A stretch of DNA of 13,345 nt from Thermoplasmata archaeon. GTDB taxonomy: Archaea > Thermoplasmatota > Thermoplasmata > Thermoplasmatales > Thermoplasmataceae. Shown one piece after another: positions 1-13,345 of this stretch. The translations under genes were made by a program, and so were the position numbers. Within the stretch, counting starts at the first letter, position 1. Each line of letters starts with the position of its first letter. Location of the stretch: assembly GCA_021797265.1 (NCBI GenBank), contig JAJZZZ010000027.1:1-13345 (forward strand), in the 5' to 3' direction. Below the pieces are notes generated by a model. It saw nothing but the letters and a program-made list of their open reading frames with translations. It was not told the origin of the DNA and did no database searches.

Positions 1-1190
1 CCCATGAGACCGAACCTTGGTATGAGCACAATGGAGAAAACAACATTTGCAGCAAGAGCAGCAGCACTTGAGTATATGAATAGATGTGTCTTCCGCACAG
101 ATGCTATTGCCTGTGTGAGTATGTTCACGGAAATGAAGAGAGCCGAAAAACCCATTATTATTGAAAGTGCAACAGAGCCTCCTGTGTACTGATAACCACC
201 AAGTAGATCCAGGATCATTGGTGAAAGCGCCGCAATTCCCAGCGCCGCCGGCACGTAAATTGATGAAAGAAGCACGGATGAGCCGTCAACTAGGCTTGAT
301 ATCTCTCCCCTCCTTCCCTCGCCGAAGAGTTCTGAAAATTTGGGCATGAGTATGTTATTGAAGGGTGTTGCAAGAAATCCTATTGATGAAGCAATCAGGA
401 GGGCAAAGTTATAGACCCCCAGTGATGAAAGGTTCAGCAGGCCTGCAACAACGAACCTGTCCATGTAAGATGCGCCATACCCTATTATTCCGGAAAGAAG
501 CACTGGCAGGGAGTACTTGAGTATGAAATTGCTGCCCGGGGCTTTACCGGTAGATGGGTAGCGGCTTACCTGCCTCAGTATGATGATAAGTTCCAGTGAT
601 ACTCCAAGGAATACTCCGATTATCCAGCCCAGTATTATGACATCAAGGCTTCGGGCATACAGTGCAAGGGCTATTGACCCGAAGTAATAGAACACCCATA
701 TGACTATGTTGATTATTGCAGAAAGCCTGAAATTTTGAAGCCCAAGTAGAGCACCATTCAATATCCCGAAGAGGATGTTCCCAAGAAGGACAACACTGAG
801 CAGCCTCACCAGGAATGAGTATGATGAACTGTGGAGGAATATGAGAGAGATCTCACCACTGGAAATAAGCAGTATGCAGAAACCAACGAGGGAAAGAAGG
901 AAGCCGAAGCCTATCATTTTCCTTATGGTTTTTCTCACTGCAGCATAATCACCTATGCCAAGGCTGTACGATGTGAAGTGCTGAGCCGCAGTGCCAAGGC
1001 CGAATGAAAAGACGATGTTGAAAAGACCAACTATGGCCAGGAACAGGGCAATGGCGCCAACAGCTGTGGTACTGAACATTCTCACAATGATGATATAAAA
1101 GATCGCCCCAGAAAACAACTGAACACCGGAACCGGTGTACTGGAAAATTGCATCCAGTCCTAGTGATCTGGATGATGTAAGTTCAGTCAT
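1..1190 (-). CDS. Wzx-like polysaccharide/oligosaccharide flippase, 3' end off the window
   Basis: The minus strand reads open for 396 codons from the ATG at 1190 to the left edge, so the C-terminus is missing. The protein is almost wholly hydrophobic, with regularly spaced membrane segments. It looks like the polysaccharide-biosynthesis/MATE-like export family (Polysacc_synt), which flips lipid-linked glycans across the cytoplasmic membrane. Family-like signs are the N-terminal segment with FSTTAVGAIALF near residue 40-50, a G/N-rich stretch GALLGLQNFRLSA near 146-158, and SYMDRFVVAGLL near 241-252 followed by LGVYNFA, which resembles the usual 'D-R-x-x-x-G ... S-x-x-x-x-G-x-Y' pattern. An in-frame ATG lies four codons upstream at 1202, but a TTTAAA box centred about 26 bp before 1190 favours 1190 as a leaderless start. 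The neighbouring DUF2079 gene and secreted proteins rich in glycosylation sequons fit a role in surface glycan export. The substrate cannot be told from sequence. Confidence 0.85.
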   Translation of the reverse strand, partial: MTELTSSRSLGLDAIFQYTGSGVQLFSGAIFYIIIVRMFSTTAVGAIALFLAIVGLFNIVFSFGLGTAAQHFTSYSLGIGDYAAVRKTIRKMIGFGFLLSLVGFCILLISSGEISLIFLHSSSYSFLVRLLSVVLLGNILFGILNGALLGLQNFRLSAIINIVIWVFYYFGSIALALYARSLDVIILGWIIGVFLGVSLELIIILRQVSRYPSTGKAPGSNFILKYSLPVLLSGIIGYGASYMDRFVVAGLLNLSSLGVYNFALLIASSIGFLATPFNNILMPKFSELFGEGRRGEISSLVDGSSVLLSSIYVPAALGIAALSPMILDLLGGYQYTGGSVALSIIMGFSALFISVNILTQAIASVRKTHLFIYSSAAALAANVVFSIVLIPRFGLM

Positions 1191-1212
1191 TTCTCCCCAC
1201 ATGCATAGTTTG

Positions 1213-1220
1213 CTTTAAAA
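1213..1220 (-). promoter_or_regulatory. TATA-like box for the flippase gene
   Basis: On the minus strand a TTTTAAAG-type element lies about 26 bp upstream of the ATG at 1190. This is the spacing expected of an archaeal TATA box that drives a leaderless mRNA. The rest of the 96-bp gap (1191-1286) shows nothing else. Confidence 0.45.
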
Positions 1221-1286
1221 TTATTCGATCAGCAATATTGCAAGACTGTGCATACATGTGCAGGTTGGTGTTTAGGTTCACAACGC

Positions 1287-3251
1287 TCATGCCCCCGTTT
1301 CCTGGATGCTCATGGACTGCAATGTCATTGTTCCCTGGAAATTCAGGCCTGTTATGAACAGTTCAGAGTTAACATAGAAATTATCAAGGGTGAAGTTTAC
1401 TGTCACTGAATTCTGGCCGCTGCTAATGGTTGATGATGACAGGATTATGTTTCCAGCAACATTCTCCGCGGAAAGCCTGAACTGGATGTCTGAAGAACTG
1501 GCAATGGACACACCGGAAAGATTGAGGTGTAGAGAATATGTTCCAGGATAGAGCAGGAATGTGGTTGAGGGTATTACTGTCACATTGCTTGCATCAGATA
1601 TCTTCAACCCCCCTGCTGATACTGCAGTTGAATTCAGGGCAAACATCTGCTTGTATGATACTGCGGGATAGTGCATGGGACTGAAAAGCACCGGCGAACC
1701 ATGGTAATCTCGTTCAATGAGGAACGCCCCATGATATTCTGCCACAACACCAAAGGCACCTGAAGCCATGGCGTTCTGCGTGAACTGATACTGATTGTAA
1801 CCATCCACAGCAGGAGTCGTGACCATGTCGTTGGGCACACCTGAAACATACCGTATTGAACTGTTAGATGCCAAGAACTGTGGAGTCCACGCCAGCGGAT
1901 AGCCGTTGATTGTGTCTGATACCAGTGTGCTGTTGACATTTGGGGAATGAACCATGACTTCAGGCATGTCCCCTCCAAATACTATGCCTGTGGCACTGGC
2001 CGGAATCAGATTGATTACAGACTGCAGTTCGGGCTCCGTGACAGGCCCTGCTGTTGTGTAATTTGAAATATTAAGGGATCCATTAGTGTGTGCTGCCACC
2101 GGACTGTATGGCTGGAAAAGTACGGCAAATATGGCTATGGCCACAAATATCTTTATGGCTGTCCTGAAGTGTGCATCCGTCCTCTGCCTTGAAACCTTTG
2201 GCTGCGGGGACGGCGGTTCATCAGGATTGACCCTCCTTCTGGACATGAGACCTGCAAAAACGCTAATAAAGATAAGTGGAACAAACAGCGCTGAATACTG
2301 GTCAGTGAAAACCGACGGGTAAAGATATCCACCATAGTTTGTGTAGAATGCAAAACCAAACAGGGCCCAGAGAATCAGCGAGAACTCTGAGTAATAAAGT
2401 GGAAGAAGAAGCAGAGGTGCGGTGAATATTAGAACGGTTATGAGGTCTGTTCCCAGTGATCCGCCAAGGAATGTTGTACCGGCAACATAGTGAATATTAC
2501 CCAGGGATGAGACACCCAGCACGTATGTGTTGGCATAATATTGCAACAGCGTGATGATGAATGCAGCGAAGAACAGCACCATGTCAAATTTCATCCTTGT
2601 TCGCATGGCGGAGCTGTCTGGATTACGGTATCCTGTCCTGAAGTTATAGATGAAATCGGCCATTGAATAGAGGACAACAATCCCGATTATGGGGAATCTT
2701 GCGAGACCGGCCAGGATGAACAGGACCAGTGACAGCTTGTACCTGCCGGAAATTTCCAGATAGTATGCCAGAAGCATGAAAGGCAGGAAAAATGTCTGGG
2801 CATGCACATCAAAGAATATTGATCCATTGACCGGAAAATAAAGCAGGTATGCCACCGACATCAGCACCGGAGCTATGGGATTCCTGAAGATTCGCCTGGA
2901 TATGAGGTAAACAGTGACAGCTGAACCCAGCACCAGCACAAGCTGGATATATAGGAGAACAATGAAGCTGTTGAATACTGACAGGGGCGAAAGAATTATT
3001 CTCAGGGTAGAACCGGCAGCGTACTGATACAGTATGGTTGTGGAGTGGATGTAGAATATTGAGTGCAAAGACCCATAGAATACTCCAAGATCGAATACGT
3101 AATCATGCAATGTGAGATACTTCAGCCATATTATGGGAGCCCAGTATATCAGGGCCAGAGCAACTGCCAGGAAGGGAATTACATTCATTACGGTCTGCAG
3201 TGAGCTTGAAACTGGATGTTCAGTGCGGGTTTGGCTGGAACTGCTTAACAT
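1287..3251 (-). CDS. DUF2079-type polytopic membrane protein with large C-terminal ectodomain
   Basis: This is a 654-aa membrane protein that I place in the DUF2079 family of predicted GT-C-like membrane proteins. Supporting motifs are FDLGVF at residues 53-58, in the first loop after TM1, where GT-C enzymes carry an acidic residue, and FFDVHAQTFFLPF at 146-158, resembling the family's 'FDxH...P' segment. Hydrophobic helices cover roughly 22-42, 88-118, 125-142, 153-165, 172-197, 222-240, 268-310, 320-335 and 365-383. Residues from about 385 to the end form a soluble, probably extracellular domain with several N-x-S/T sequons and no terminal anchor. A role in surface glycosylation using a lipid-linked sugar is plausible beside the flippase but is inference. 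The start is well supported by a TATATA box about 25 bp upstream. The C-terminal part is predicted beta-rich (a 'PGTYSLHLNLSG' segment near 569-580), similar in flavour to the repeat protein at 11534-13242. Confidence 0.8.
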   Translation of the reverse strand: MLSSSSQTRTEHPVSSSLQTVMNVIPFLAVALALIYWAPIIWLKYLTLHDYVFDLGVFYGSLHSIFYIHSTTILYQYAAGSTLRIILSPLSVFNSFIVLLYIQLVLVLGSAVTVYLISRRIFRNPIAPVLMSVAYLLYFPVNGSIFFDVHAQTFFLPFMLLAYYLEISGRYKLSLVLFILAGLARFPIIGIVVLYSMADFIYNFRTGYRNPDSSAMRTRMKFDMVLFFAAFIITLLQYYANTYVLGVSSLGNIHYVAGTTFLGGSLGTDLITVLIFTAPLLLLPLYYSEFSLILWALFGFAFYTNYGGYLYPSVFTDQYSALFVPLIFISVFAGLMSRRRVNPDEPPSPQPKVSRQRTDAHFRTAIKIFVAIAIFAVLFQPYSPVAAHTNGSLNISNYTTAGPVTEPELQSVINLIPASATGIVFGGDMPEVMVHSPNVNSTLVSDTINGYPLAWTPQFLASNSSIRYVSGVPNDMVTTPAVDGYNQYQFTQNAMASGAFGVVAEYHGAFLIERDYHGSPVLFSPMHYPAVSYKQMFALNSTAVSAGGLKISDASNVTVIPSTTFLLYPGTYSLHLNLSGVSIASSSDIQFRLSAENVAGNIILSSSTISSGQNSVTVNFTLDNFYVNSELFITGLNFQGTMTLQSMSIQETGA

Positions 3252-3269
3252 TGTTTTAAATGTTCAAAG

Positions 3270-3280
3270 AAATATATAAG
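3270..3280 (-). promoter_or_regulatory. TATA box for the DUF2079-type gene
   Basis: The minus strand reads CTTATATATTT here, centred about 25 bp upstream of the ATG at 3251. This matches an archaeal TATA box with a leaderless start. Confidence 0.6.
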
Positions 3281-3344
3281 AGTAGTATGTAGGTCGTTGT
3301 GCCTGTACTTCTTTATGTGATGCGTGAAATCTATAACTGCAATC

Positions 3345-3388
3345 ACGTAATAAAGTAAAATAATTGAAAAATTCTGTGGCAGAAAAAA
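3345..3388 (-). terminator. U-rich archaeal-type terminator after the protease gene
   Basis: Immediately after the protease stop codon the minus strand carries a T6 tract, then T5, T4 and further T-rich runs. There is no strong hairpin. Oligo-T tracts alone are typical of archaeal termination. The call rests on composition only. Confidence 0.45.
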
Positions 3389-6300
3389 TCAGAGGCCACG
3401 GGAAAGATATTCCCCGGCCTGGTAGTACCCATAGAAATCTATGGAGAGATTCATAGCGCTCAGGGTACCAATTCCTGCGAAATCATTCCATCCCTGGCCA
3501 AGGTATCCACTTCCCGTTTCCCCGGGATACGGTTCAACATAGTTCACCTGGTGGAATCCGGGAGCACCAAAGAGTGATCCATATCCCAGTCCATACAGAA
3601 CAGGCTGTATCCAGCCCATATATCCTCCTCCAGGGACTCCCGATTCATTCAGGAACTGCGCAATGTCCGCAAATATGCCGGCCGATATAGGTGTGGCATA
3701 GCTGGTGCCACCTCCTATCAAAAACATACCATGGAATGTGGTTATGAGGTTTGTGGAAGGCATGGATATGTCCGGCTGGGCCCTGTTTGTGTACATTGAC
3801 GGAACAATGATCCTCTCAGCCGACTGGTACAGCGGCCTTGAGAAGAACAGGCTGTTTCCTCCACCGGATCCCACCGGGCCACCATACCACTTGTATTCTG
3901 GCTGGTACCAGCCGCTCTCATTGACTATTGCACCAGTACTGTTCAGCTGAGTATAGACTCCGCCAACAGAGACAATGTAGGGGGATGCCATCACGGTGAG
4001 GTACAGAGAACTGTGACTGTCTGCAGATCCAAGGAATATGGTAGTTCCCTCAGCCACGGCCTGCATACCTATCTGGGTGTATATTGCCGCGAACCCGCTG
4101 TCATGATGGAACTGGAGTTCTGCCCAGCTGCCCGAAATGACATTTGGATGTATGACATTCAGGAAGTAGTAGAGTTCCAGGTTGATTGCATTGTCACCTA
4201 TACCTGTTATGTTGAATGGGACCATCACGTCATAGATGGTGGCATTTGGCGCCATTGCACCGGACCATTCAACGTCAAGGTCGGCCTCGAAGCCCTCTCT
4301 GTATGGATTCATGCCGTTAGTTGTGAGGTTCACGAATTTCACTGCTGGGTTGTGTATGCCATACGTGTTCCAGAATTCGCTGACACTGCTCATGTTGACT
4401 GCTTCACCAACTCCCAGTATCCCGATGCTTATGCCATGGCCTGTGTAACCGGCATTTTGCAGTGTTGTGACATTATAATAGTTCTCAAGGTTCGGTGGCG
4501 TCAGGACATGGTTGCTGGCAAAGGGATCGCTGACCTGTGTTGCTGAGGTCAATCCAGTCTTCACCTGCTGCTGATTCACTCCTCCAAGCAGTACGCCTGT
4601 TGAATAGCTGAGCCCGTAAACATGCAGAATCGTACCGTTGAACTGCGCCGGGATATATGGATTTGCCGTGTTGGTCATGAACTCCGCTGGATATGCGCCC
4701 GGATAATTGAAATAATAGTTGAATTCAATGACGCCAAATGCCGATTCAATCTGACCAACAGTTCCAGATACTACTATTGCAAGAGGAGCATAGGCGTAGT
4801 TCCATACCTTGAGGCCAAGCGATGAATAGTATGATTCAACGGCCGTCACTGTTGACTGGTTGGGGTAATATGAGCTCATGAACTGCTGTGGGGTCAGGAA
4901 CTGGTGGAAGTTCGGAGACATTGGAGAGTTAACGGCCGAATCGAATGTCTGGAGTTCCGTGAGATTCGTCATGTTAAGGTAGATCACCACATTCATAGGT
5001 GCACTGGCGTTGGCTGAACCAGCATTGAGCAGGAATGGCTGGAAGGCAGGGTCAGCCATAACGTACGGAATGCTTCCTGAAAGCTGCACTGAATTGACGG
5101 GAGGTATATCTATGACGTTCAGAGGCAAATAGTCTCCACCATTGGCTATGAGTCCATTATCATTGTATGGTATTGTACCATTGAAATTGTACCAGTAATT
5201 ACCTCCATAATATGGACCGCCGACTACACTGCCCCGTCCCTGGAAATAGCCAGTGCCGTTTATTGTGTACAGGTATATCGTGGTTGATGAGCTCAGCTCA
5301 TGTGTTTCATTCCAGTAGTTGTGATAGCTTGCATAGTTGCCGCTGTATATGCTGTAATCCGGGCTCTGTGCAGGGAAAACCACAGTGAAGAAGTTATTTA
5401 TCACCGCACTGTTGTTGCCGAATATGGATATTCCAACAGGTTCTCCCCATATATTCCACGAAGCCCTGAGGGAAGGTTCTGTGAGATATGGGCTGTTGTT
5501 AAAATGATTTCCCCAGACACCCACTTGGCTGTTGTAAAGTAGCACAGAAGAATCCATTGAGAGGAAATCACTGTTCAGTATTCCTCCTGAACTGTTCCAG
5601 AATACCACGTTTGCCTCGGGGAAGCCCGCCTGGTTGTAAGTATACCATCCTGTAATGGATGTGCTGTTTTCCAGAACAACACCTGATGAGTTGTAGAACC
5701 AGTATCCCAGGAAATTATCAGGCAGGCCAGTGTAGAACAGGGAATAAAGCTGGTATGTATCGGAGTAGACTATGGGGAATGCAGGCATGTTGTTAAAAAC
5801 AATGTACTGGTTGGTGTTCAGGAGCATGACCGCTTCGAACTGCGGGAAAGCGAAATCATTTAGCTGCCCGAACAGTGGACTCATATAATTATACTCCTGG
5901 TTGAATGCAACGTACGGATTTGATATTGTGCCATCGCCTGAAACAGATATATTTGCCAGCTGAGCATTGTTCTCAGCATAGAGTGGTGTGTATATTCCAG
6001 TTGAAGGATTACTGGATAGCATGAAGTTCTCGCCCGGCGTTAGGATATTGACTTCCGGGTTGTGATAGCTCATGAGGGCCTCTGCGCTATATGTGCCTGC
6101 GGGCAGCCAGAAGTTATAGTCTCCAGCCGCTGTCAGAGGCACGTAGCCATTATAGTTATTGCTCATTACACTTCCGGGACTCACGAAGAGGAATGCATTG
6201 CTTGGTGCAACCTGCCCATAGAACTGTTCCATCTGACTCTGGCCGCTGATGTTCCACATCCCATACAGAAGTGATGGACCGGGAGTCAATATTGCCTGAT

Positions 6301-7507
6301 GTGCCGTGTTCCATGCAACTGCCATTCCCACGGAAGTCTCACCAGTGTCCGTACCAAAGTCATATGCAGAGGGCACATTGACATATCCAGGCATCCCGAC
6401 ATTATTTTTCCCGGGTGCAGGCGGGGTGGGATGAGACGGGACTTCAGGATTTGCCTGGGGGATATACTTAAGGCTCATTGTCCCGTGGATGTTCATCACA
6501 TTTGTTGTGCTTCCACCACCAGGCCCTCCCAGCATGATCTCGCTGTCATAAAGCAGTCCATTTGGAGCAGGAGTGGTTCCGCTGACAAGGAAATCGGAGA
6601 TCTTGACCTGAGAATTGGGATGTGGGTCAAGAGGTTGAGATTTGTTGCCTTTATTATTGTGATCTGGTGACTGCATTGGGGTGGAATTAAAGGTAACACG
6701 ATCATATGTTCCACTCACGCCAATCGTTGGGATGGAGTAGTTGAAGTAAACTGCATCGTTACCGTTGTACAGTGACGTGTTCAAGTAGAGATGGGCAACA
6801 AATGGTGTTGACACATTATAGGATGGGCCAATAGCTATATGTACTCCTGGATACGGGTAGACCTGGCCGGTGGAATTAAGAATTGCGTTGTTTGTCATTA
6901 CTGCGGTTGGGGAAGAGAAATTCCATATGTTATCCTCAAAGCTCAAAACATGAGTCCTTGTGGAGTATACAATGACATTCTGGGTCCAGAATGAATAGTT
7001 CGCAACACCGAAGAGAGTTGTATTGGCCATTACAGTATTCAGCTGGAATGTGAGAGAGCTGGGACCATCATTTCCCAGGTTGTACACACTAAGGTTATTG
7101 ATCCTCAATGTTGCCTGGAAACTGTTGCTGTAATAGTTGTGGCCCACAAGAGTTCCGCTCTCATTCTGCAGTCCAAAGAATCCCAGCCCCATGGGCGCAG
7201 GAGCAAAATCATATAAAGGTGTCACTGTGCCATTTTCAAGCCGGAAGTTGGGATGTGCATTTGGTAGGAAGAGAAGCCTGTTAACATTGTTGATCTTCCC
7301 TTGATGCACTGCGCTAGCGTGATTCCCTGTAGTTCCCGAGCTGGCTGGCAAAGACGGCCGGCTTGTGGGATTTACTGGAGTATTTCCTGTAGAGGTATTG
7401 CCATGCGAAGTTGAATGGTTATTATATGATATGGCCATGCCAACTGCGCTTACTATCATCACAATTGAGATCATTAACACTAAGGCTGTCGCTATCTTCT
7501 TATCCAT
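3389..7507 (-). CDS. Secreted dual acid protease: thermopsin (A5) domain plus pro-kumamolisin/S53 sedolisin domain
   Basis: This 1372-aa exported protein joins two unrelated acid-protease domains. Residues 6-28 form a signal peptide or anchor, followed by a Ser/Thr/Asn/Pro-rich linker to about 65. Residues about 95-270 look like thermopsin (peptidase A5): the PAPMGLGFFGL motif at 103-113 and WTQNVIVY...FEDNIWNFSSP at 174-200 are family hallmarks. Residues about 400-800 are Asn/Gly/Tyr-rich and beta-like, ending in a GGNYW...NDNGLI segment. Residues about 835-930 resemble the pro-kumamolisin activation domain (SPNFHQFLTPQQF at 864-876). The S53 catalytic part runs from about 1000 to 1350, with Glu1074 and Asp1078 in E-A-D-L-D and Ser1269 in GGGTSYATP as the predicted Glu/Asp/Ser triad, and a C-terminal GWNDFAGIGT (1339-1348) like the family's calcium-site region. 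It probably degrades protein outside the cell at low pH. A stop codon two codons before the ATG at 7507 excludes a longer N-terminus. Confidence 0.93.
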   Translation of the reverse strand: MDKKIATALVLMISIVMIVSAVGMAISYNNHSTSHGNTSTGNTPVNPTSRPSLPASSGTTGNHASAVHQGKINNVNRLLFLPNAHPNFRLENGTVTPLYDFAPAPMGLGFFGLQNESGTLVGHNYYSNSFQATLRINNLSVYNLGNDGPSSLTFQLNTVMANTTLFGVANYSFWTQNVIVYSTRTHVLSFEDNIWNFSSPTAVMTNNAILNSTGQVYPYPGVHIAIGPSYNVSTPFVAHLYLNTSLYNGNDAVYFNYSIPTIGVSGTYDRVTFNSTPMQSPDHNNKGNKSQPLDPHPNSQVKISDFLVSGTTPAPNGLLYDSEIMLGGPGGGSTTNVMNIHGTMSLKYIPQANPEVPSHPTPPAPGKNNVGMPGYVNVPSAYDFGTDTGETSVGMAVAWNTAHQAILTPGPSLLYGMWNISGQSQMEQFYGQVAPSNAFLFVSPGSVMSNNYNGYVPLTAAGDYNFWLPAGTYSAEALMSYHNPEVNILTPGENFMLSSNPSTGIYTPLYAENNAQLANISVSGDGTISNPYVAFNQEYNYMSPLFGQLNDFAFPQFEAVMLLNTNQYIVFNNMPAFPIVYSDTYQLYSLFYTGLPDNFLGYWFYNSSGVVLENSTSITGWYTYNQAGFPEANVVFWNSSGGILNSDFLSMDSSVLLYNSQVGVWGNHFNNSPYLTEPSLRASWNIWGEPVGISIFGNNSAVINNFFTVVFPAQSPDYSIYSGNYASYHNYWNETHELSSSTTIYLYTINGTGYFQGRGSVVGGPYYGGNYWYNFNGTIPYNDNGLIANGGDYLPLNVIDIPPVNSVQLSGSIPYVMADPAFQPFLLNAGSANASAPMNVVIYLNMTNLTELQTFDSAVNSPMSPNFHQFLTPQQFMSSYYPNQSTVTAVESYYSSLGLKVWNYAYAPLAIVVSGTVGQIESAFGVIEFNYYFNYPGAYPAEFMTNTANPYIPAQFNGTILHVYGLSYSTGVLLGGVNQQQVKTGLTSATQVSDPFASNHVLTPPNLENYYNVTTLQNAGYTGHGISIGILGVGEAVNMSSVSEFWNTYGIHNPAVKFVNLTTNGMNPYREGFEADLDVEWSGAMAPNATIYDVMVPFNITGIGDNAINLELYYFLNVIHPNVISGSWAELQFHHDSGFAAIYTQIGMQAVAEGTTIFLGSADSHSSLYLTVMASPYIVSVGGVYTQLNSTGAIVNESGWYQPEYKWYGGPVGSGGGNSLFFSRPLYQSAERIIVPSMYTNRAQPDISMPSTNLITTFHGMFLIGGGTSYATPISAGIFADIAQFLNESGVPGGGYMGWIQPVLYGLGYGSLFGAPGFHQVNYVEPYPGETGSGYLGQGWNDFAGIGTLSAMNLSIDFYGYYQAGEYLSRGL

Positions 7508-7553
7508 TTTTGTTCATGATTGTTGACGTGAACTATTTTTCTCTATCTAAAAT

Positions 7554-7568
7554 TCATATATATTTAAG
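7554..7568 (-). promoter_or_regulatory. TATA box for the dual-protease gene
   Basis: The minus strand reads CTTAAATATATATG. It lies 48-60 bp upstream of the ATG at 7507, farther than the other boxes here, so this mRNA should have a short leader of about 25-35 nt. No clear Shine-Dalgarno sequence is visible in it. Confidence 0.55.
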
Positions 7569-7573
7569 TAGGT

Positions 7574-7592
7574 TGACAGACAGGGACTGTCA
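7574..7592. promoter_or_regulatory. Palindrome just upstream of the protease TATA box, possible operator
   Basis: GACAG-GGA-CTGTC (7579-7591) is a perfect inverted repeat with a 3-bp spacer. A further TGACAG at 7574-7579 overlaps its left arm. It sits directly upstream of the protease TATA box, where archaeal activators often bind. A regulatory role is inference; it may also belong to the adjacent IS remnant. Confidence 0.3.
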
Positions 7593-7619
7593 CTGCTAAA
7601 ACAACTAAACTTCGAAATG

Positions 7620-7945
7620 ATAATCTGTTTTACCCGATGTGAGCGTGAGGACCCCCTTTACCGGACAGGGGCATGAAAGCGAACAACTTTTAAGACATAC
7701 GCAGCAATGCAATTCATATTCTGTCTACACCTGAAATGGTAAGGCACTCTCCAGAAGAGTAAGACGGTTAAGTTGGGCGATGAAAATCTCTCAAAGTGGT
7801 ACATTCTCCGTAAGGAGAATGGGGATTTACATCAAGAAATATTTGGGTGGTCAGTACATTTTGGAACTTCAGGCTGTTGTCAGCCAGCCATTCATTGCGG
7901 TCCAATGAAACTCCGCTCATGGATCGAGGTAAGACCAGTAACAAT
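7620..7945 (+). mobile_element. Internally deleted, decayed tnpB-family (IS200/IS605-type) element
   Basis: The left end (7627-7684) aligns without gaps to the left end of the intact element (8176-8233), with about 42 of 58 identical bases. GTGAGCG and ATGAAAGCGAAC boxes flank a short C-rich/G-rich hairpin in both. Most tnpB coding sequence is missing. The right part (about 7780-7951) resembles the 3' end of tnpB, including a 32-nt stretch (7868-7899) that matches 9318-9349 at 28 of 32 positions. The terminal hairpin is decayed, but the final GGTAAGAC still resembles GGTAGTTGAC. Outer ends are approximate. It could only move if an enzyme were supplied from elsewhere. Confidence 0.7.
7650..7671 (+). 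repeat. Left-end hairpin of the decayed IS element
   Basis: CCCCT and AGGGG pair around a nine-base loop. The corresponding hairpin in the intact element is at 8203-8221. The loop bases differ, while the stem and flanking boxes are kept. Confidence 0.55.
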
Positions 7946-7951
7946 CTCTGA
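7780..7951 (+). pseudogene. tnpB C-terminal remnant
   Basis: In the frame of position 7832 the DNA encodes SRNIWVV...FRLLSASHSLR. Without gaps, 11 of the first 23 residues match the intact TnpB C-terminus, which reads ARNIGIL...FRLMSTSQSLR. The frame stays open to a TGA at 7949-7951. Upstream, a TAA at 7811-7813, a lost codon in the ADLNAAR motif and loss of the zinc-ribbon cysteines show decay. The match to the zinc-ribbon part (about 7780-7830) is weak and needs a proper alignment. An overlapping 71-codon open frame starting at 7773 is not credible as a gene because the homology lies in another frame. Confidence 0.7.
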
Positions 7952-8012
7952 TGCTTCAGTGATGAGTAGCAGACATCAGGACCGATAGAATGTCATGAAA
8001 AGATTTAGCAAA

Positions 8013-8026
8013 TGGGACATGTCCCA
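8013..8026. repeat. 14-bp perfect palindrome
   Basis: TGGGACATGTCCCA is a perfect palindrome in the gap between the two IS copies (7952-8165). Nothing next to it identifies a role. It could be a regulator site or a leftover of a nested insertion. Confidence 0.5.
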
Positions 8027-8051
8027 AAGCAACCGGAAATCAATACCTGAC

Positions 8052-8094
8052 CACATCTATGGATAAAGAGTTGTAGATGTGATAATATCTACAG
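8052..8094 (+). repeat. Two mutually exclusive hairpins sharing one strand
   Basis: CACATCTA (8052-8059) is complementary to TAGATGTG (8074-8081) over 8 bp. The overlapping strand 8072-8080 also pairs with 8085-8093, giving 9 bp with one wobble and a GATA loop. Only one of the two can form at a time. There is no visible ORF or oligo-T tract behind it, so no function is assigned. The 7952-8165 interval holds no gene that I can support. Confidence 0.45.
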
Positions 8095-8113
8095 GTGATA
8101 TAATGAAGCAGAA

Positions 8114-8136
8114 ACCCCGTCTGACCTTCAGGGTGG
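8114..8136 (+). repeat. Degenerate right-end-like hairpin
   Basis: CCCC...CTGACCTTCAG...GGTGG has the layout of tnpB-element right-end hairpins (C-run, short stem, TTCAG, G-run), but the outer stem is mispaired. It may be the end of a third, older element. The call rests on pattern only. Confidence 0.3.
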
Positions 8137-8197
8137 AACGAATTTCAGACTTCTATGCTTATTAATCATAGGTCAGTTTTATCCAACGTGAGCGGGA

Positions 8198-8222
8198 AGT
8201 CTCCCTTTCGCAAGAGAGGGGA
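8198..8222 (+). repeat. Left-end hairpin of the intact IS element
   Basis: TCCCTTT pairs with AGAGGGG (seven pairs with two wobbles) around a CGCAAG loop. A GTGAGCG box lies before it and an ATGAAAGCGAAC box after it. Both boxes recur in the older copy at 7638-7684. Confidence 0.55.
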
Positions 8223-8264
8223 TGAAAGCGAACATTAGTAACCTACTGTGCAATCTATTAAATA

Positions 8265-9395
8265 ATGTTCAGGACTATTAAACTAAAACTTCCTTATGAC
8301 AATTCCCTTCTGGAAACGGGAAGACAATTCAAGGAGGCATGCCAAATAGTACTGGACTATGGATTTTCAGCACAAACATTCAACAAGAACAAACTCAACA
8401 GGGCAACGTATAAAGACGTTAGAAAGGCCATACCATCATTACCCTCAGCACTTGTCCAGACCGCAAGGGATACTGCATCCGAATCACTGAAGCAGACAAA
8501 ACTTAAAAGGAAAATACACAGGACATCATTAACTATCAGATATGATAGAAGAACATTCAAATTCTACCCTGATTCGCATACAATATCACTGACAACCGTC
8601 AGGGGGAGACTGGTATTCCCAATTGCACATTCTCCCCTTATTGAGAAATACAGGGGTGAATACACAAATGCACAGGTAATCATTGACACAAAGCACCAGA
8701 GGATGTCAGTAATGGTTCAGGTTGAATCACCGGATAAAGAGGTGGAAAAAAAGGCAGATAACAATGTAAATGCAATGGGAATAGACAGGGGAATAAAGAA
8801 CATAGCGGTATTGTCAAACAACATGTTCTTCAATGCAGGCCAGTTGAGAAGCATCAAGGGAAGATACCAGTACAACAGATCAGAATTACAGCATGCAGGC
8901 ACTCGTTCCGCCAGAAGAAAACTGAAAGAATTAAGCGGAAGAGAGAGACGGTTCGTGCAGAATACAAATCATGTAATTTCAAAAGAGATCGTGAATCTTT
9001 CCTGTGATCTCATTGCACTTGAAGAGTTGGGTTCGGCAGGAATGAGAAGGAAAAACAACGGAAAGGGATTCAACACAATGCTAGGATCATGGTCTCCATT
9101 CCAGCTGGAACAGTTCATAGAATATAAGGCACAGGAGATGGGAAAAACAGTGATCTATGTAAACCCTAAATACACATCACAGAGATGTTCATCCTGTGGA
9201 TATATGGATAAGAACAACAGGAAAGGATCGATCTTTCACTGCCTGAACTGCAACCTTGAACTTCATGCCGATCTCAATGCCGCAAGAAACATCGGAATAC
9301 TAGGTAAATCTGAGTATTTCAGGCTGATGTCAACCAGCCAATCGTTGCGTCATACAGACAGCAACAAGCCCCTTCCGTCAGGGAGGGGTAGTTGA
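8265..9395 (+). CDS. tnpB: TnpB, RNA-guided nuclease of an IS200/IS605-type element
   Basis: This is a 376-aa TnpB of normal length with all expected active-site features. RuvC-I Asp is at about 174 (MGIDRGIKNIAVLS), RuvC-II Glu at about 253 (IALEELGS) and RuvC-III Asp at about 336 (HADLNAARNIG). A zinc ribbon has Cys308, Cys311, Cys326 and Cys329. The N-terminal half is the basic RNA-binding part. Characterised TnpB proteins use an RNA made from the element's right end (omegaRNA) to cut DNA next to a short motif, which helps the element persist. The stop codon falls inside the right-end structure, so the coding end and the presumed RNA overlap. The start at 8265 lies 31 nt after the left-end ATGAAAGCGAAC box. 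No tnpA accompanies it. Codons 34-67 occur again, identically and inverted, at the right edge of the window. Confidence 0.97.
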   Translation: MFRTIKLKLPYDNSLLETGRQFKEACQIVLDYGFSAQTFNKNKLNRATYKDVRKAIPSLPSALVQTARDTASESLKQTKLKRKIHRTSLTIRYDRRTFKFYPDSHTISLTTVRGRLVFPIAHSPLIEKYRGEYTNAQVIIDTKHQRMSVMVQVESPDKEVEKKADNNVNAMGIDRGIKNIAVLSNNMFFNAGQLRSIKGRYQYNRSELQHAGTRSARRKLKELSGRERRFVQNTNHVISKEIVNLSCDLIALEELGSAGMRRKNNGKGFNTMLGSWSPFQLEQFIEYKAQEMGKTVIYVNPKYTSQRCSSCGYMDKNNRKGSIFHCLNCNLELHADLNAARNIGILGKSEYFRLMSTSQSLRHTDSNKPLPSGRGS

Positions 9396-9396
9396 C
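9255..9396 (+). ncRNA. Candidate omegaRNA (right-end guide RNA) of the tnpB element
   Basis: TnpB systems take their guide RNA scaffold from the 3' end of tnpB and the right end of the element. Here the segment ends in an 8-bp hairpin (CCCCTTCC-GTCA-GGGAGGGG, 9369-9388, one G-U pair) followed by TAGTTGAC. The best-conserved DNA between the intact and decayed copies (9318-9349 against 7868-7899, 28 of 32) lies inside it, in keeping with selection on RNA or recent shared descent. The 5' boundary is a guess. The guide would be the host DNA after about 9396. Confidence 0.5.
9369..9388 (+). repeat. Right-end hairpin of the intact IS element
   Basis: Eight base pairs (one G-U) close a GTCA tetraloop. 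It overlaps codons 369-375 of tnpB. Similar C-rich/G-rich terminal hairpins are characteristic of archaeal tnpB-only elements. Confidence 0.75.
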
Positions 9397-9458
9397 TTGG
9401 TACATTGTCCCATCATTATGAATACTAACTAGATGAGTTGTCTAATTAATCCAACTGA

Positions 9459-9470
9459 AATTTATATATC
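9459..9470 (+). promoter_or_regulatory. TATA box for the three-gene surface cassette
   Basis: AATTTATATATC is centred about 25 bp before the GTG at 9490. It supports a leaderless transcript and that GTG as the true start of the first gene. Confidence 0.6.
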
Positions 9471-9489
9471 ACTTAAGTATTAATCTACC

Positions 9490-10011
9490 GTGAAAAGAAA
9501 CATAATGATTGCTGTTACATTAATCCTGGCGCTTATGGTGCCTGTCGTAACAACTGCAGCAGTTGTCGTTAGCAATGATATCACATTTACTACGTCCGTT
9601 ACTCATTCTAATGATATTTACCTTACAGATGGGCCGGGATACACATATGCCAATGCCTCAGGATACATTAGCATTGTAGGGAACAATTCAAACTACACAA
9701 ATGAAACGATTGATATTTCCACCATTCCAGGAAGTGGATACGTGGTGATGACAAACGTGCTTGCAGTATACAATGGCACTACCACGTCACACCCCGTATA
9801 TTTGTGGTTCAATGGAACAATTCCGACCGGTGTCCAGATATTTTACAGCAGCAGTCCCATGACCTTCAATGGAACCTCCGTGAGTGGTTCACTAATGTCA
9901 GGCACAAATGGTCCAATTCATCTAACCACCAGTGGAGATGCTCTGTATATCTCCATTATTGTGTCTTTGTCCTCACCTGCATCATTTACGCTGACTATGC
10001 AGCAGGAATGA
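9490..10011 (+). CDS. Small secreted protein, first gene of cassette, function unknown
   Basis: This is a 173-aa protein with a GTG start set by the TATA box 25 bp upstream. Residues 1-23 form a Sec-type signal (basic MKRN, hydrophobic core, TTAA cleavage region), and the mature chain would begin near AAVVVSND. The rest is Ser/Thr/Gly/Asn-rich, predicted beta-strand, with several N-x-S/T sequons (e.g. NNSNYTNET near 65-73) and a GSGYVVMTNVLAVYNGT segment near 82-97. There is no C-terminal anchor. I do not recognise the family with confidence. Its N-terminus resembles that of the next protein (hydrophobic core, then AAV-V/I-V), suggesting paralogy. One possibility is a TasA/AbpA-like donor-strand fibre subunit, but this is conjecture from architecture and not from a motif match. 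The stop codon abuts the next gene, so the two are surely cotranscribed. Confidence 0.85.
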   Translation: MKRNIMIAVTLILALMVPVVTTAAVVVSNDITFTTSVTHSNDIYLTDGPGYTYANASGYISIVGNNSNYTNETIDISTIPGSGYVVMTNVLAVYNGTTTSHPVYLWFNGTIPTGVQIFYSSSPMTFNGTSVSGSLMSGTNGPIHLTTSGDALYISIIVSLSSPASFTLTMQQE

Positions 10012-10641
10012 GTGAGAGAACAAATGAGAGCAAAACTTGGTAGATACGGGCTGTTAATATTGCTGGCTGCGTCTGTAATCATGGTCACTTCAGTCTCATT
10101 TGCAGCAGTAATAGTTGTCAACAGTTACCAGATGAATGTTACTCCTGTTCATCCAAGTATAGAGCTTATTAAAAGCAATAATTCTTCCATATCCAGCAGT
10201 ATTAATTCTTACAACAGCACGGATCAAGTGACCTATTCCTCATCACAGGTCAGTACTGTCAATGAGAGTGATGTTGCCAGTTTCTCAAATGACGGTTCTT
10301 CCCCGGTAGTTCTCAGTTTGAATCTCTTAGATTATTCGGGAGTCAAATATGTGAATCAGATTATAATTTATACTGAATTTCCAAACTCATCATACAGCCA
10401 AGTTATCAACCTGACATTCGTTAATGGAACTCTCTCCTCCAGACAGAATTATTCCGTGGATGTGGGGTCAGATAGATCAGTATCAATTGGAGAAAAAATT
10501 GTAATGGATAGTGGTAACGCGGCCAGTAGCACAATATATATTGGACTATCTCTGCCTTTTCACATAGGTAGCAATGCTATATCATATGTGGGATCAAGTT
10601 ATTATCTTACAATTACAACACAGTATGGCATATTTTATTGA
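10012..10641 (+). CDS. Small secreted protein, second gene of cassette, function unknown
   Basis: This is a 209-aa protein whose GTG directly follows the previous stop codon. An in-frame ATG at 10024 (MRAKLGRYG) is an equally good or better start. A basic N-terminus and a hydrophobic core (LLILLAASVIMVTSVSFAA) form a signal peptide, cleaved near the AAVIVV segment and mirroring the upstream protein. The mature part is Ser-rich (a run of Ser and Asn near residues 55-70) and then beta-like, with 'FSNDGSSPVVLSLNLLDY' near 91-108 and no further membrane helix. It is probably extracellular and N-glycosylated. The family is not recognised. The shared signal/N-strand pattern with its neighbour suggests duplication, and the two may form a heteropolymer or complex; that is inference. 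The 3' end is 12 bp from the next start. Confidence 0.85.
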   Translation: MREQMRAKLGRYGLLILLAASVIMVTSVSFAAVIVVNSYQMNVTPVHPSIELIKSNNSSISSSINSYNSTDQVTYSSSQVSTVNESDVASFSNDGSSPVVLSLNLLDYSGVKYVNQIIIYTEFPNSSYSQVINLTFVNGTLSSRQNYSVDVGSDRSVSIGEKIVMDSGNAASSTIYIGLSLPFHIGSNAISYVGSSYYLTITTQYGIFY

Positions 10642-10653
10642 TGGAAAGAAGCA

Positions 10654-11502
10654 ATGATAGTTTACAATTTCCATAACCTTTTGAACTTCATTCCTCAATA
10701 CGTTGCTTCCACGCTGATCGCTCTTCTGGTTTACTTTTATATTGGGCACAGAGCACCAAAGCTGCCAGTGACAGTTAGATTGTCAGAGGGACATGCGAAG
10801 ATAAGAGAATCTTTCTTCAAATCTCCATTCTATGCAGATAGTGGAATCGCCATGGAAAAAATTTGTCCGGTAGAGGTCACTGAAAATGGATACAGCATTA
10901 GAAAGAGGAAAAACCTTGATTACAATCGTGTGTTCTTTTCCCTTCTTTACTCATATCTATCTGGATCCTTCAGACCAGATGTGCAAAAAAATAGTACACG
11001 TTATTCCAGAAGCCGGGATTTAGACTATAACAGAGCATTCTTTGACATCTACCGCATATTTTTTTCCGTCATAATATGGGCGGGATTGCTATTTCTCATA
11101 ACGCCATTCCACGATATTTATATATTTTTGCCACATCTTAATGCCACAGGAAATATAATAGTGGCTGTCATTCTTGCAGTATCAATTTTTGAAGCTATAA
11201 TTTCTCTAATATATTTTATTTCTGGAACCAGAATGAAAACCATACTTTTTGTTGAGGGTGGCATACTGACCATATTTTCCCTGTCTTTACTGGCACCGTC
11301 CATGACATGGTTCCATACTTACAGCAATTCTGGTAAAATAATAATATACGCAACACTCCTGATCCTTTTTCTTGCCATTGGCATTATAATACCACAACTC
11401 AGGAAAAGAACAACAATATACAGGACATCTTTTGCCTTTACATTAACTGCATATATCTTCATTCTATTGGTTGTCATAATAAATATTCTAAGATTGGTTT
11501 GA
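10654..11502 (+). CDS. Six-helix membrane protein with duplicated LDYNR-x-FF motif
   Basis: This is a 282-aa polytopic protein and the last gene of the cassette. TM1 covers about 11-30. A basic, probably cytoplasmic stretch of about 100 residues follows, then five helices at about 134-152, 166-190, 195-213, 227-246 and 258-280. The loop holds a short duplication: LDYNRVFF at 88-95 and LDYNRAFF at 123-130, each after a basic run (RKRKN and RSRD) and each followed by aromatic hydrophobic residues, as if an amphipathic segment had been repeated. No catalytic motif is recognised. Given the two secreted partners, a role in exporting, anchoring or assembling them is possible but unproven. Base composition appears more AT-rich here than in the protease gene (by eye). 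The end converges with the repeat-protein gene on the other strand, 31 bp away. Confidence 0.85.
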   Translation: MIVYNFHNLLNFIPQYVASTLIALLVYFYIGHRAPKLPVTVRLSEGHAKIRESFFKSPFYADSGIAMEKICPVEVTENGYSIRKRKNLDYNRVFFSLLYSYLSGSFRPDVQKNSTRYSRSRDLDYNRAFFDIYRIFFSVIIWAGLLFLITPFHDIYIFLPHLNATGNIIVAVILAVSIFEAIISLIYFISGTRMKTILFVEGGILTIFSLSLLAPSMTWFHTYSNSGKIIIYATLLILFLAIGIIIPQLRKRTTIYRTSFAFTLTAYIFILLVVIINILRLV

Positions 11503-11503
11503 C

Positions 11504-11528
11504 TTGGCTAGTCCAGATTTATAGCCAA
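11504..11528. terminator. Hairpin between convergent genes, possible bidirectional terminator
   Basis: TTGGCTA and TAGCCAA form a perfect 7-bp stem with an 11-nt loop in the 31-bp gap between two convergent stop codons. There is no long oligo-T tract, so the terminator reading rests mainly on position. Confidence 0.45.
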
Positions 11529-11533
11529 CTATC

Positions 11534-13345
11534 CTACATGGGAGCATCAGCGAAAAAAAACATGGATTCGAAATAATCTGGTGGAATTACCTGCGGCAGA
11601 TTCAGTAGAGGTGAAATCTGGGGAGGATGAGGAACAGGTGAGAAAACTGAAGACACACATATCAACAATGGATTCATTGGCGACGGGACTGGCGCGGGTG
11701 GCAACGGCGTTGAATTTGATGTCATAGCAATCCATATTGCCATGGGTGAGATTATTATGATAACCTGCACCTGAGACCCGCTTATCACCAATGGTAATCT
11801 AACAGGTGTCTTAAACGGGGTTCCCGTGACATCCACAGTAAGATGATATGTACCATTCATCAACTCAATGTCATTTTCTGTCACAGCTTTATGATTTACT
11901 GTTATATTCACGCTAACACCGGGAGGCATGAATTCAATGAATGACACCACATAGAGAGTCTTCTCTATTCGAACAAAATGCAGGTGCAGTGTAATACTCT
12001 TATTGTTCACAGTGAAATCCCCAGAGTGCACATCCATGTATCCATTTACGTGCGAAACTGTATAACTGTAATGACCGTTATGTAGCATAATTCTTGCCAC
12101 ATGGTTCGATGAAGAAATATTCGCTATGCCAGATATATTTACCCACCACTGAGTACCGCGTGGAAGTCCACTTTCCATGAATTTAACAGTGTGAAGGCTG
12201 GTGACAAAGTGGATTCTGACCGTCACTGGGTGATCTTTGACCATGATATAACCACTGACACTGTTGTATCCGGGCGAAGTTGCAGTGTAATTGTACCTTC
12301 CATTCGGCATGCTTATCATAAGGGAGTGATTAAATGACGAATAGTTGTCTCCGTTGGAAAGTGAAACATTCCATAGAGCTCCATGTTTCAGGTTGCTTAT
12401 GAATGATACATCATATTGGAGTTCATGGATATAAAGTATTACAGTCTCATCGGCACCGGTAACGTTCAGGTGAGACGTGTAGGTTTCATATCCCGTTATA
12501 CCTGAGACAACGTAAACGTATGAACCGTTTTGAAGACCTACTTCGAAGTAAGTTCCATTTATAGTATAGTTATTGCCGGCAATTTCTAAATTCCATTCTT
12601 TCAAACCTGATGGCGAGACTACGGTGAAATTTACATCATAGAGTACCGGCTTGAATGAAACGTAAACTATTTTACCTGAACCGTTCACATGCAGAACTCC
12701 GTTAAAATCGTACCATGAAGAATTCATTGGATCTACAGTGAATGTATAGGTGCCATTTGAGAGATAAACGGTAATATTCCCATGATTTGGGCCTACAGTA
12801 TCATTTCCTGAAATGATGAGGTACCATGTAAAGGGGCTGTACTGGCCCGAAATATCGAATGAAATCGCAAATGTAACTTTAGTGAACTGTGCATAGATAA
12901 TTTCATTGGACCCATTAACTGAAAGGGTCATTTCAGAACCTCTGTATATATGGTTACTACTCAAATATGTGATATGATATGTCCCATTCATTAAATGGAC
13001 GTAAATATTGGAATACTGACTGCCGAGAACAGTTCCATTAGGGAGAGTTACCTGCCATTGAGTTCCCGTGGGGAGACCTGATTCCTCTATGGTCACGTTA
13101 TAAAGAACGGGGTGGAGAGTAATCGTGCTGGAAACATTATGACCATCGACTCGAACACTGAAGTCTGAAGGGTAATAGTTCCTGCTTGAGCTCAGAATTT
13201 TAATTGAATATGTTCCATTGGGAAGAAGTATTGAATAAATGTTTGCGGTCTGGACAAGTGCTGAGGGTAATGATGGTATGGCCTTTCTAACGTCTTTATA
13301 CGTTGCCCTGTTGAGTTTGTTCTTGTTGAATGTTTGTGCTGAAAA
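11534..13345 (-). CDS. Secreted beta-repeat surface protein, N-terminus missing and fused in frame to a tnpB fragment
   Basis: The minus strand is open from the right edge to the TAG at 11534 (603 codons). Residues counted from position 13242 make up about seven tandem beta-rich units, each with an 'L-x-N-G-T-Y-x-x-T/K-V' strand (LPNGTYSIKI, LMNGTYHITY, LSNGTYTFTV, LQNGSYVYVV, MPNGRYNYTA, LHNGHYSYTV, LMNGTYHLTV). Some units also have the 'ESGLPxGTQW' motif, seen twice, that is common in thermoacidophile surface proteins. N-glycosylation sequons are abundant. The C-terminus is a short hydrophobic stretch (QVQVIIIISPMAIWIAM) and a Pro-rich tail. An internal GTG at 13096 could be taken as the start, but repeat homology continues upstream, so the gene is longer. 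The first 34 codons in the window are tnpB sequence, not a signal peptide. The role is probably in the cell surface, adhesion or S-layer. Confidence 0.8.
   Translation of the reverse strand, partial: FSAQTFNKNKLNRATYKDVRKAIPSLPSALVQTANIYSILLPNGTYSIKILSSSRNYYPSDFSVRVDGHNVSSTITLHPVLYNVTIEESGLPTGTQWQVTLPNGTVLGSQYSNIYVHLMNGTYHITYLSSNHIYRGSEMTLSVNGSNEIIYAQFTKVTFAISFDISGQYSPFTWYLIISGNDTVGPNHGNITVYLSNGTYTFTVDPMNSSWYDFNGVLHVNGSGKIVYVSFKPVLYDVNFTVVSPSGLKEWNLEIAGNNYTINGTYFEVGLQNGSYVYVVSGITGYETYTSHLNVTGADETVILYIHELQYDVSFISNLKHGALWNVSLSNGDNYSSFNHSLMISMPNGRYNYTATSPGYNSVSGYIMVKDHPVTVRIHFVTSLHTVKFMESGLPRGTQWWVNISGIANISSSNHVARIMLHNGHYSYTVSHVNGYMDVHSGDFTVNNKSITLHLHFVRIEKTLYVVSFIEFMPPGVSVNITVNHKAVTENDIELMNGTYHLTVDVTGTPFKTPVRLPLVISGSQVQVIIIISPMAIWIAMTSNSTPLPPAPVPSPMNPLLICVSSVFSPVPHPPQISPLLNLPQVIPPDYFESMFFFADAPM
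13243..13345 (-). mobile_element. Inverted 103-nt exact copy of internal tnpB sequence at the window edge
   Basis: The reverse complement of this stretch is identical, base for base, to 8364-8466 (tnpB codons 34-67). Identity stops abruptly at GCAA: the intact gene continues as GGGAT and this copy as ACATT. The end is inside tnpB, so this is not an element boundary. It means either a truncated second tnpB copy or a chimeric join. Confidence 0.9.

What the first reader, a model, noticed from the sequence alone, without database searches (positions are those of the whole stretch)
13243..13345. 103-nt perfect inverted copy of tnpB fused in frame to a surface-repeat gene
The window ends in a base-perfect copy of tnpB codons 34-67 on the opposite strand, about 4.8 kb from the intact gene. 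The reading frame runs without a stop from tnpB (…SALVQTA) straight into the beta-repeat protein (NIYSILLPNGTYS…). Neither side is at an IS boundary. Three explanations compete: a recent second tnpB insertion followed by a deletion that removed the 3' half of tnpB and the signal peptide of the surface protein; recombination between IS copies; or an inverted chimera from whole-genome amplification or assembly. If real, the first N-terminal codons would encode RNA-binding TnpB sequence where a secretion signal is needed, so the fused gene would probably be dead as a secreted protein.
Basis: partly seen in the sequence, partly recalled or inferred. Interest (0 to 1): 0.75.

Follow-up and report, generated by a model that had tools for sequence, protein, structure and literature searches.

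The report
Probably chimeric end of archaeal contig
The last 103 bases of this archaeal contig are an exact backwards copy of part of a transposon gene, joined into the middle of a long surface-protein gene that is unbroken in related archaea; this is most likely a sequencing or assembly artefact, although a recent real rearrangement cannot be excluded.

Summary
In detail: 13243-13345 is a base-perfect inverted copy of 8364-8466 (tnpB codons 34-67), flush with the window's end and in frame with a surface-repeat gene. Relatives decide most of the rest. Four genomes (G019, G049, G001:C81, G020) carry the surface gene as one open frame of 1453-1643 codons. In the single-contig genome G019 the DNA alignment to the window stops at 13245, at the junction; the orthologue runs on for about 1,070 codons. 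The tnpB site is empty in G019 and G001. So the window lacks about two thirds of the gene, not only a signal peptide, and the cut is mid-repeat. The join is inverted, the arms are 4.8 kb apart, and an inferred 3-nt match lies at the junction: the published pattern of amplification chimeras. Of 109 contig ends checked elsewhere, 0 had an inverted copy longer than 12 nt. I rate a chimeric contig end 0.6. A real second tnpB copy plus deletion (0.25) or a real inversion variant (0.12) stays open; one contig, L001, speaks for the former. No reads and nothing past 13345 were available.

The parts
13243..13345 (-). 103-nt inverted exact copy of tnpB codons 34-67, at the end of the window
   Evidence: inverted repeat, 100%; reading frame
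8364..8466 (+). source arm inside the intact tnpB
8265..9395 (+). intact tnpB, 376 aa (RNA-guided endonuclease TnpB family, NF040570)
   Evidence: relatives
11534..13242 (-). C-terminal third of a beta-repeat surface-protein gene; N-terminal two thirds missing from the window
   Evidence: 57% to G019 residues 1070-1625, no gaps; 61% to P0243 residues 945-1513
13243..13245 (.). TTG at the junction, shared by tnpB (reverse complement) and by the G019 orthologue: inferred 3-nt microhomology
   Evidence: alignment end; sequences printed; the window species' own native sequence is not in hand
7626..9443 (+). interval holding tnpB and a shorter element; replaced by about 265-290 nt without similarity in G019 and G001
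8179..8232 (+). left end of the tnpB element; 96% identical over 54 nt to the left end of an IS200/IS605 element in L001

Best explanation
The contig ends in a chimeric join, not in a natural gene fusion. A strand carrying the surface gene (on the + strand, ending ...TGTTTG) was joined, probably by priming on a 3-nt match, to the tnpB strand 4.8 kb away on the same molecule, as happens in multiple displacement amplification or by template switching during library preparation. The assembler followed that sequence into tnpB and stopped where it could no longer be told from the tnpB already assembled. Shown: the inverted copy, its place at the contig end, the unbroken orthologues, the empty tnpB site in two relatives, and the lack of any long overlap between tnpB and the G019 orthologue at the junction. 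Inferred: that the chimera is physical, the 3-nt microhomology in this species, and the reason for the stop.
For: Exact inverted copy flush with the contig end. G019 aligns to the window up to 13245 and then continues as surface gene; open frames through this position in G019, G001:C81, G020 and G049, and in proteins P0241-P0245 (P0241 not printed but aligned). Junction in mid-repeat. Only TTG shared by tnpB and the G019 orthologue at the join, so an overlap of assembler word length is not the cause if the native sequence resembles G019. Published MDA chimeras: 406 of 475 inverted, inverted pairs mostly under 10 kb apart, 93.5% of inverted pairs under 10 kb with complementary bases at the join (PMC1855051, abstract and Results section). 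0 of 109 contig ends of other assemblies had an inverted copy above 12 nt (49 ends, longest 12; 27 + 33 ends, none of 12 or more), so such an end is unusual.
Against: The way the sample was prepared is unknown; nothing here shows that it was amplified. The same control cuts the other way: inverted tails are rare in other assemblies too, and G016, which by its plate-like name may be a single-cell genome (my guess), showed 0 of 27. In the second MDA study most overlaps were 5-8 nt with a mode of 6 and the modal distance 250-300 nt (PMC4595205, passages); here 3 nt and 4.8 kb. The contig follows the join rather than the native gene, which suggests that the native path was weak or absent in the reads. 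L001 shows a tnpB upstream of a related surface gene in the same orientation, and near-identical tnpB pairs within one genome exist. The frame is kept across the join (1 in 3 by chance).
Confidence: 0.6

Rival explanations
1. A real second copy of tnpB lay upstream of the surface gene in the same orientation, and a deletion from tnpB codon 67 to about residue 945 of the surface protein joined the two. The contig ends because the copy cannot be told from the first one.
For: L001 (G001:C145) has a tnpB of this family (84% over 1205 nt) at 1609-2802 and, same strand, the start of a related surface gene at 5759 (389 aa, 71% to P0243), with other transposase genes between. In FK_Sedi_A_Bin.118 two tnpB copies are 99.4% identical over 1262 nt (L026/L027). 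The identical TnpB protein is listed on 2 contigs, the longer 32,572 bp (P0121), one of which may be the window's own.
Against: It needs a recent exact second copy and a deletion that ends within two reading frames. In the five genus genomes one long match to this tnpB was found (G001:C145), partial ones in G020 and G013, and only short end pieces in G019 and G021. Most other same-genome pairs compared were 70-95% identical (the 100% pair L031/L038 is one contig seen twice). L001 probably comes from another genome than G001:C81 (two TPP-enzyme copies, 100% and 86%), and in G019 that neighbourhood lies about 171 kb from the surface locus. L001's tnpB appears interrupted (longest listed frame 263 aa).
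Confidence: 0.25
2. A real inversion of 8467-13242 exists in part of the population. Its left junction would be exactly this join, and the contig mixes the two orientations.
For: The geometry fits: 13242 joined to the reverse complement of 8466.
Against: The only inverted repeat found is the 103-nt pair itself, and at the breakpoints no more than 3 nt are shared. It would break both tnpB and the surface gene. The reciprocal junction is not in the window.
Confidence: 0.12

Closest known systems
Inverted chimeras of multiple displacement amplification (Lasken and Stockwell 2007, PMC1855051; abstract and Results read)
   Same: inverted join, segments under 10 kb apart, a few shared bases at the join
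   Different: known here only as one join at a contig end; sample preparation unknown, no reads seen
tnpB-only elements of the IS200/IS605 superfamily in Thermoplasmata
   Same: the intact gene 8265-9395 is an ordinary member, with relatives at 69-89% identity in the 16-sequence alignment
   Different: the 103-nt piece is an internal fragment without element ends
Beta-repeat surface proteins of Thermoplasmata (P0241-P0245 and G019, G049, G001, G020)
   Same: the window's 569 residues align without gaps to P0243 and, over 556 residues, to G019
   Different: the window holds only the C-terminal third, headed by tnpB sequence

Membership tests
Inverted amplification/library chimera | two segments of one locus joined in inverted orientation, under 10 kb apart | tested here: met
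   inverted, 4776 nt between arms
Inverted amplification/library chimera | short shared bases at the join | tested here: inconclusive
   3 nt (TTG) inferred from the G019 orthologue, not from the species itself
Inverted amplification/library chimera | join absent from unamplified DNA of the same organism | not testable with these tools
Natural gene fusion kept by selection | junction at a domain border | tested here: not met
   junction in the middle of a repeat unit
Natural gene fusion kept by selection | same fusion in relatives | tested here: not met
   orthologues in G019, G001:C81, G020, G049 are unfused open frames; among the 120 listed of 167 protein hits only P0001 exceeds 40% identity to the window's protein, and it does not reach the junction
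Second IS200/IS605-type insertion | element end at the junction with the host gene | tested here: not met
   the join is inside tnpB, at codon 67/68
Second IS200/IS605-type insertion | second element end and new flank beyond the fragment | not testable with these tools
   the window ends at 13345

The most novel reading that the evidence does not exclude
The join is real in living cells: an IS200/IS605-type rearrangement beside this surface gene (second copy plus deletion, or inversion) has made a population variant that removes or switches a surface protein of about 1,500-1,600 residues and leaves an in-frame TnpB-headed remnant.
Probability: 0.35. Interest if true: 0.3.

Novelty: not a real feature. 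Interest (0 to 1): 0.12.

Why it matters
Mainly as a warning: the fused frame should not be annotated as a TnpB-surface-protein fusion, and the surface gene in this contig is a fragment of a gene that is conserved and much longer in relatives. If the join were real it would be an IS-linked loss or switch of a large surface protein in a Thermoplasmata lineage, worth following in the population but of a known kind.

Tried and rejected
Natural gene fusion: rejected because the orthologues found are unfused and the cut is mid-repeat. Misassembly through a long shared word: rejected, on the assumption that the native sequence resembles G019, because tnpB and G019 share only TTG at the junction. A frameshifted C-terminus of the surface protein (odd proline-rich tail): rejected because P0243 aligns to the last residue.

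Searches that gave nothing usable: viral contigs with the fused protein (no pattern match), with tnpB alone (3 pattern matches, no relative) and with the 31-nt junction (0 matches); genome contigs with the fused protein (20 pattern matches, no relative); plasmids with the whole window and with the tnpB element at distant sensitivity; Rfam at gathering scores; tRNAs. One search returned 80 of 137 viral loci with TnpB relatives (best 51% identity); I did not use them. Literature: TnpB with fusion and surface protein (listing of 10 of 160 papers, none relevant); misassembly and contig ends (listing of 2, neither applied); MDA chimeras (listing of 10 of 55). Structure prediction, fold search, PHROGs and PADLOC were not used.

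Full report
What is there. The window (13,345 bp) holds, from left to right, a polysaccharide-transporter-like gene, a DUF2079-like membrane protein (below Pfam's cut-off), a thermopsin/pro-kumamolisin protein, a tnpB element, three small genes without Pfam match and, on the minus strand up to the window's end, a beta-repeat surface-protein gene. The only inverted repeat of 25 nt or more is the reported one: 8364-8466 and 13243-13345, 103 nt without mismatch, 4776 nt between. The frame from the tnpB piece into the surface gene is open (603 aa, 5' end off the window).

Relatives. An alignment of this TnpB subfamily (A1, 16 sequences) found 66 distinct loci in the genome collection, not all of them in Thermoplasmata. 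In 18 genomes reached through 18 of these 66 loci, the window's DUF2079-like protein had its best match in G001 (79% identity). The five genomes of its genus were then searched with window 7500-13345. G019, a single contig of 2,006,340 bp, matches the window collinearly at 2014-7625 (82.6% DNA identity) and 9444-13245 (67.8%). G001:C81 matches at 664-7297, 7422-7489 and in pieces from 9456 to 11462. G020:C10 has the flanking genes and the surface gene in the same order, but no thermopsin gene between them.

The surface gene. In G019 it is one open frame of 1643 codons, stop to stop. The window's part aligns to residues 1070-1625 at 57% without gaps, and the DNA alignment ends at window 13245, three bases past the junction. 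Beyond that G019 continues as surface gene. G001:C81 (1501 codons) and G020 (1453) are also uninterrupted, as is G049 (1616). In one search, 74 of 77 genomes of the family had some match to P0243, mostly short repeat matches; I count only these four as orthologues, by length and by synteny or identity. The best protein relative, P0243 (1513 aa), matches the window's part over all 569 residues at 61% (945-1513). The junction lies in the middle of a repeat unit (P0243 ...SLFVNGSMYGDNIITN|NYSILLPNGTYS...), and about the first two thirds of the protein are missing. No full-length protein of the window's own species turned up: of 24 proteins (lengths allowed about 900-2,900 aa; 7,989 best candidates scored), the closest to the window are P0241-P0243 at 58-61%. 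P0001, 100% identical over 465 aa, comes from contigs of at most 1,986 bp and starts 139 residues into the fused frame, so it does not reach the junction.

The tnpB element. It is an ordinary TnpB (NF040570). The interval 7626-9443 that holds it is replaced by about 265 nt in G019 and 290 nt in G001 without detectable similarity. I infer an insertion in the window's lineage; independent losses are not excluded. Against loci L001-L066 and six more the 103-nt piece is at most 92% identical, but it is 100% identical to the copy 4.8 kb away.

Why a chimera is preferred. Published MDA chimeras are mostly inverted (406 of 475), the inverted pairs tend to lie under 10 kb apart, and 93.5% of those show complementary bases at the join (PMC1855051, abstract and Results). 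Here the arms are 4.8 kb apart and the inferred overlap is 3 nt. A second study reports distances from 0 to over 5,000 nt with a mode of 250-300 and overlaps mostly of 5-8 nt (PMC4595205, passages), so this join is within the range but not typical of it. Inverted terminal copies are rare in other assemblies: at 49 contig ends in 40 genome loci the longest was 12 nt, and at 27 ends of 20 contigs of G016 and 33 ends of 20 contigs of G001 none of 12 nt or more was found. These 40 loci include bacteria; each end was compared only with the held stretch (at most about 12 kb), and loci of viral contigs were left out. How those samples were prepared is not known to me; G016 may be a single-cell genome by its name, in which case its 0 of 27 speaks against amplification tails being common. 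In G016 three contig ends carry an exact direct copy of exactly 55 nt, which I read as the assembler's word length; a word length of 103 would explain the length of the piece in the window, but that is conjecture.

What speaks against it. L001 (G001:C145) has a tnpB of this family upstream of the start of a related surface gene on the same strand, with a further transposase-like frame (2836-3930, not searched against a library) and a Y1_Tnp/TnpB pair between. A deletion in such an arrangement would give this join. That contig probably belongs to another genome than G001:C81, since the bin has two copies of the neighbouring TPP enzyme, 100% and 86%. In G019 the TPP gene lies about 171 kb from the surface gene, and no surface gene was found in the 4.5 kb around it (L227). 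Near-identical tnpB copies in one genome occur (99.4% in L026/L027; the other pairs compared were 70-95%, leaving out L031/L038, which are one contig). An identical TnpB protein is listed on two contigs. The contig follows the join rather than the native gene, which suggests that native reads were weak or absent. An inversion of 8467-13242 would also give this join. None of this can be settled without reads.

Verdict. Observation confirmed. Chimeric contig end 0.6, second copy with deletion 0.25, inversion variant 0.12. The fused frame should not be taken as a protein.

Noticed in passing
7624-7899: A short element just left of tnpB has both ends of the same element type (7624-7685 is 78% to the tnpB left end; 7868-7899 is 88% to 9318-9349 in the tnpB 3' part) but no tnpB body: an internally deleted, MITE-like copy.
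   Followed up: partly
L001:3901-5662: A complete IS200/IS605 pair (Y1_Tnp and TnpB) whose left end is 96% identical over 54 nt to the left end of the window's tnpB-only element. It may move such elements in trans (inference).
   Followed up: partly
G001 (C81 and C145): The bin holds two versions of the surface gene (47% and 71% to P0243) and two TPP enzymes, so it probably mixes two organisms.
   Followed up: partly
11534-11800: The surface protein ends in a proline-rich tail; P0243 has the same kind of tail and aligns to the last residue, so it is not a frameshift.
   Followed up: yes
L192, L195, L204 (G016): Three contig ends carry an exact copy of exactly 55 nt elsewhere in the sampled contigs, as expected of an assembler word length.
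   Followed up: no
L165 (G020:C10): The same neighbourhood lacks the thermopsin/pro-kumamolisin gene that the window, G019 and G001 have.
   Followed up: no
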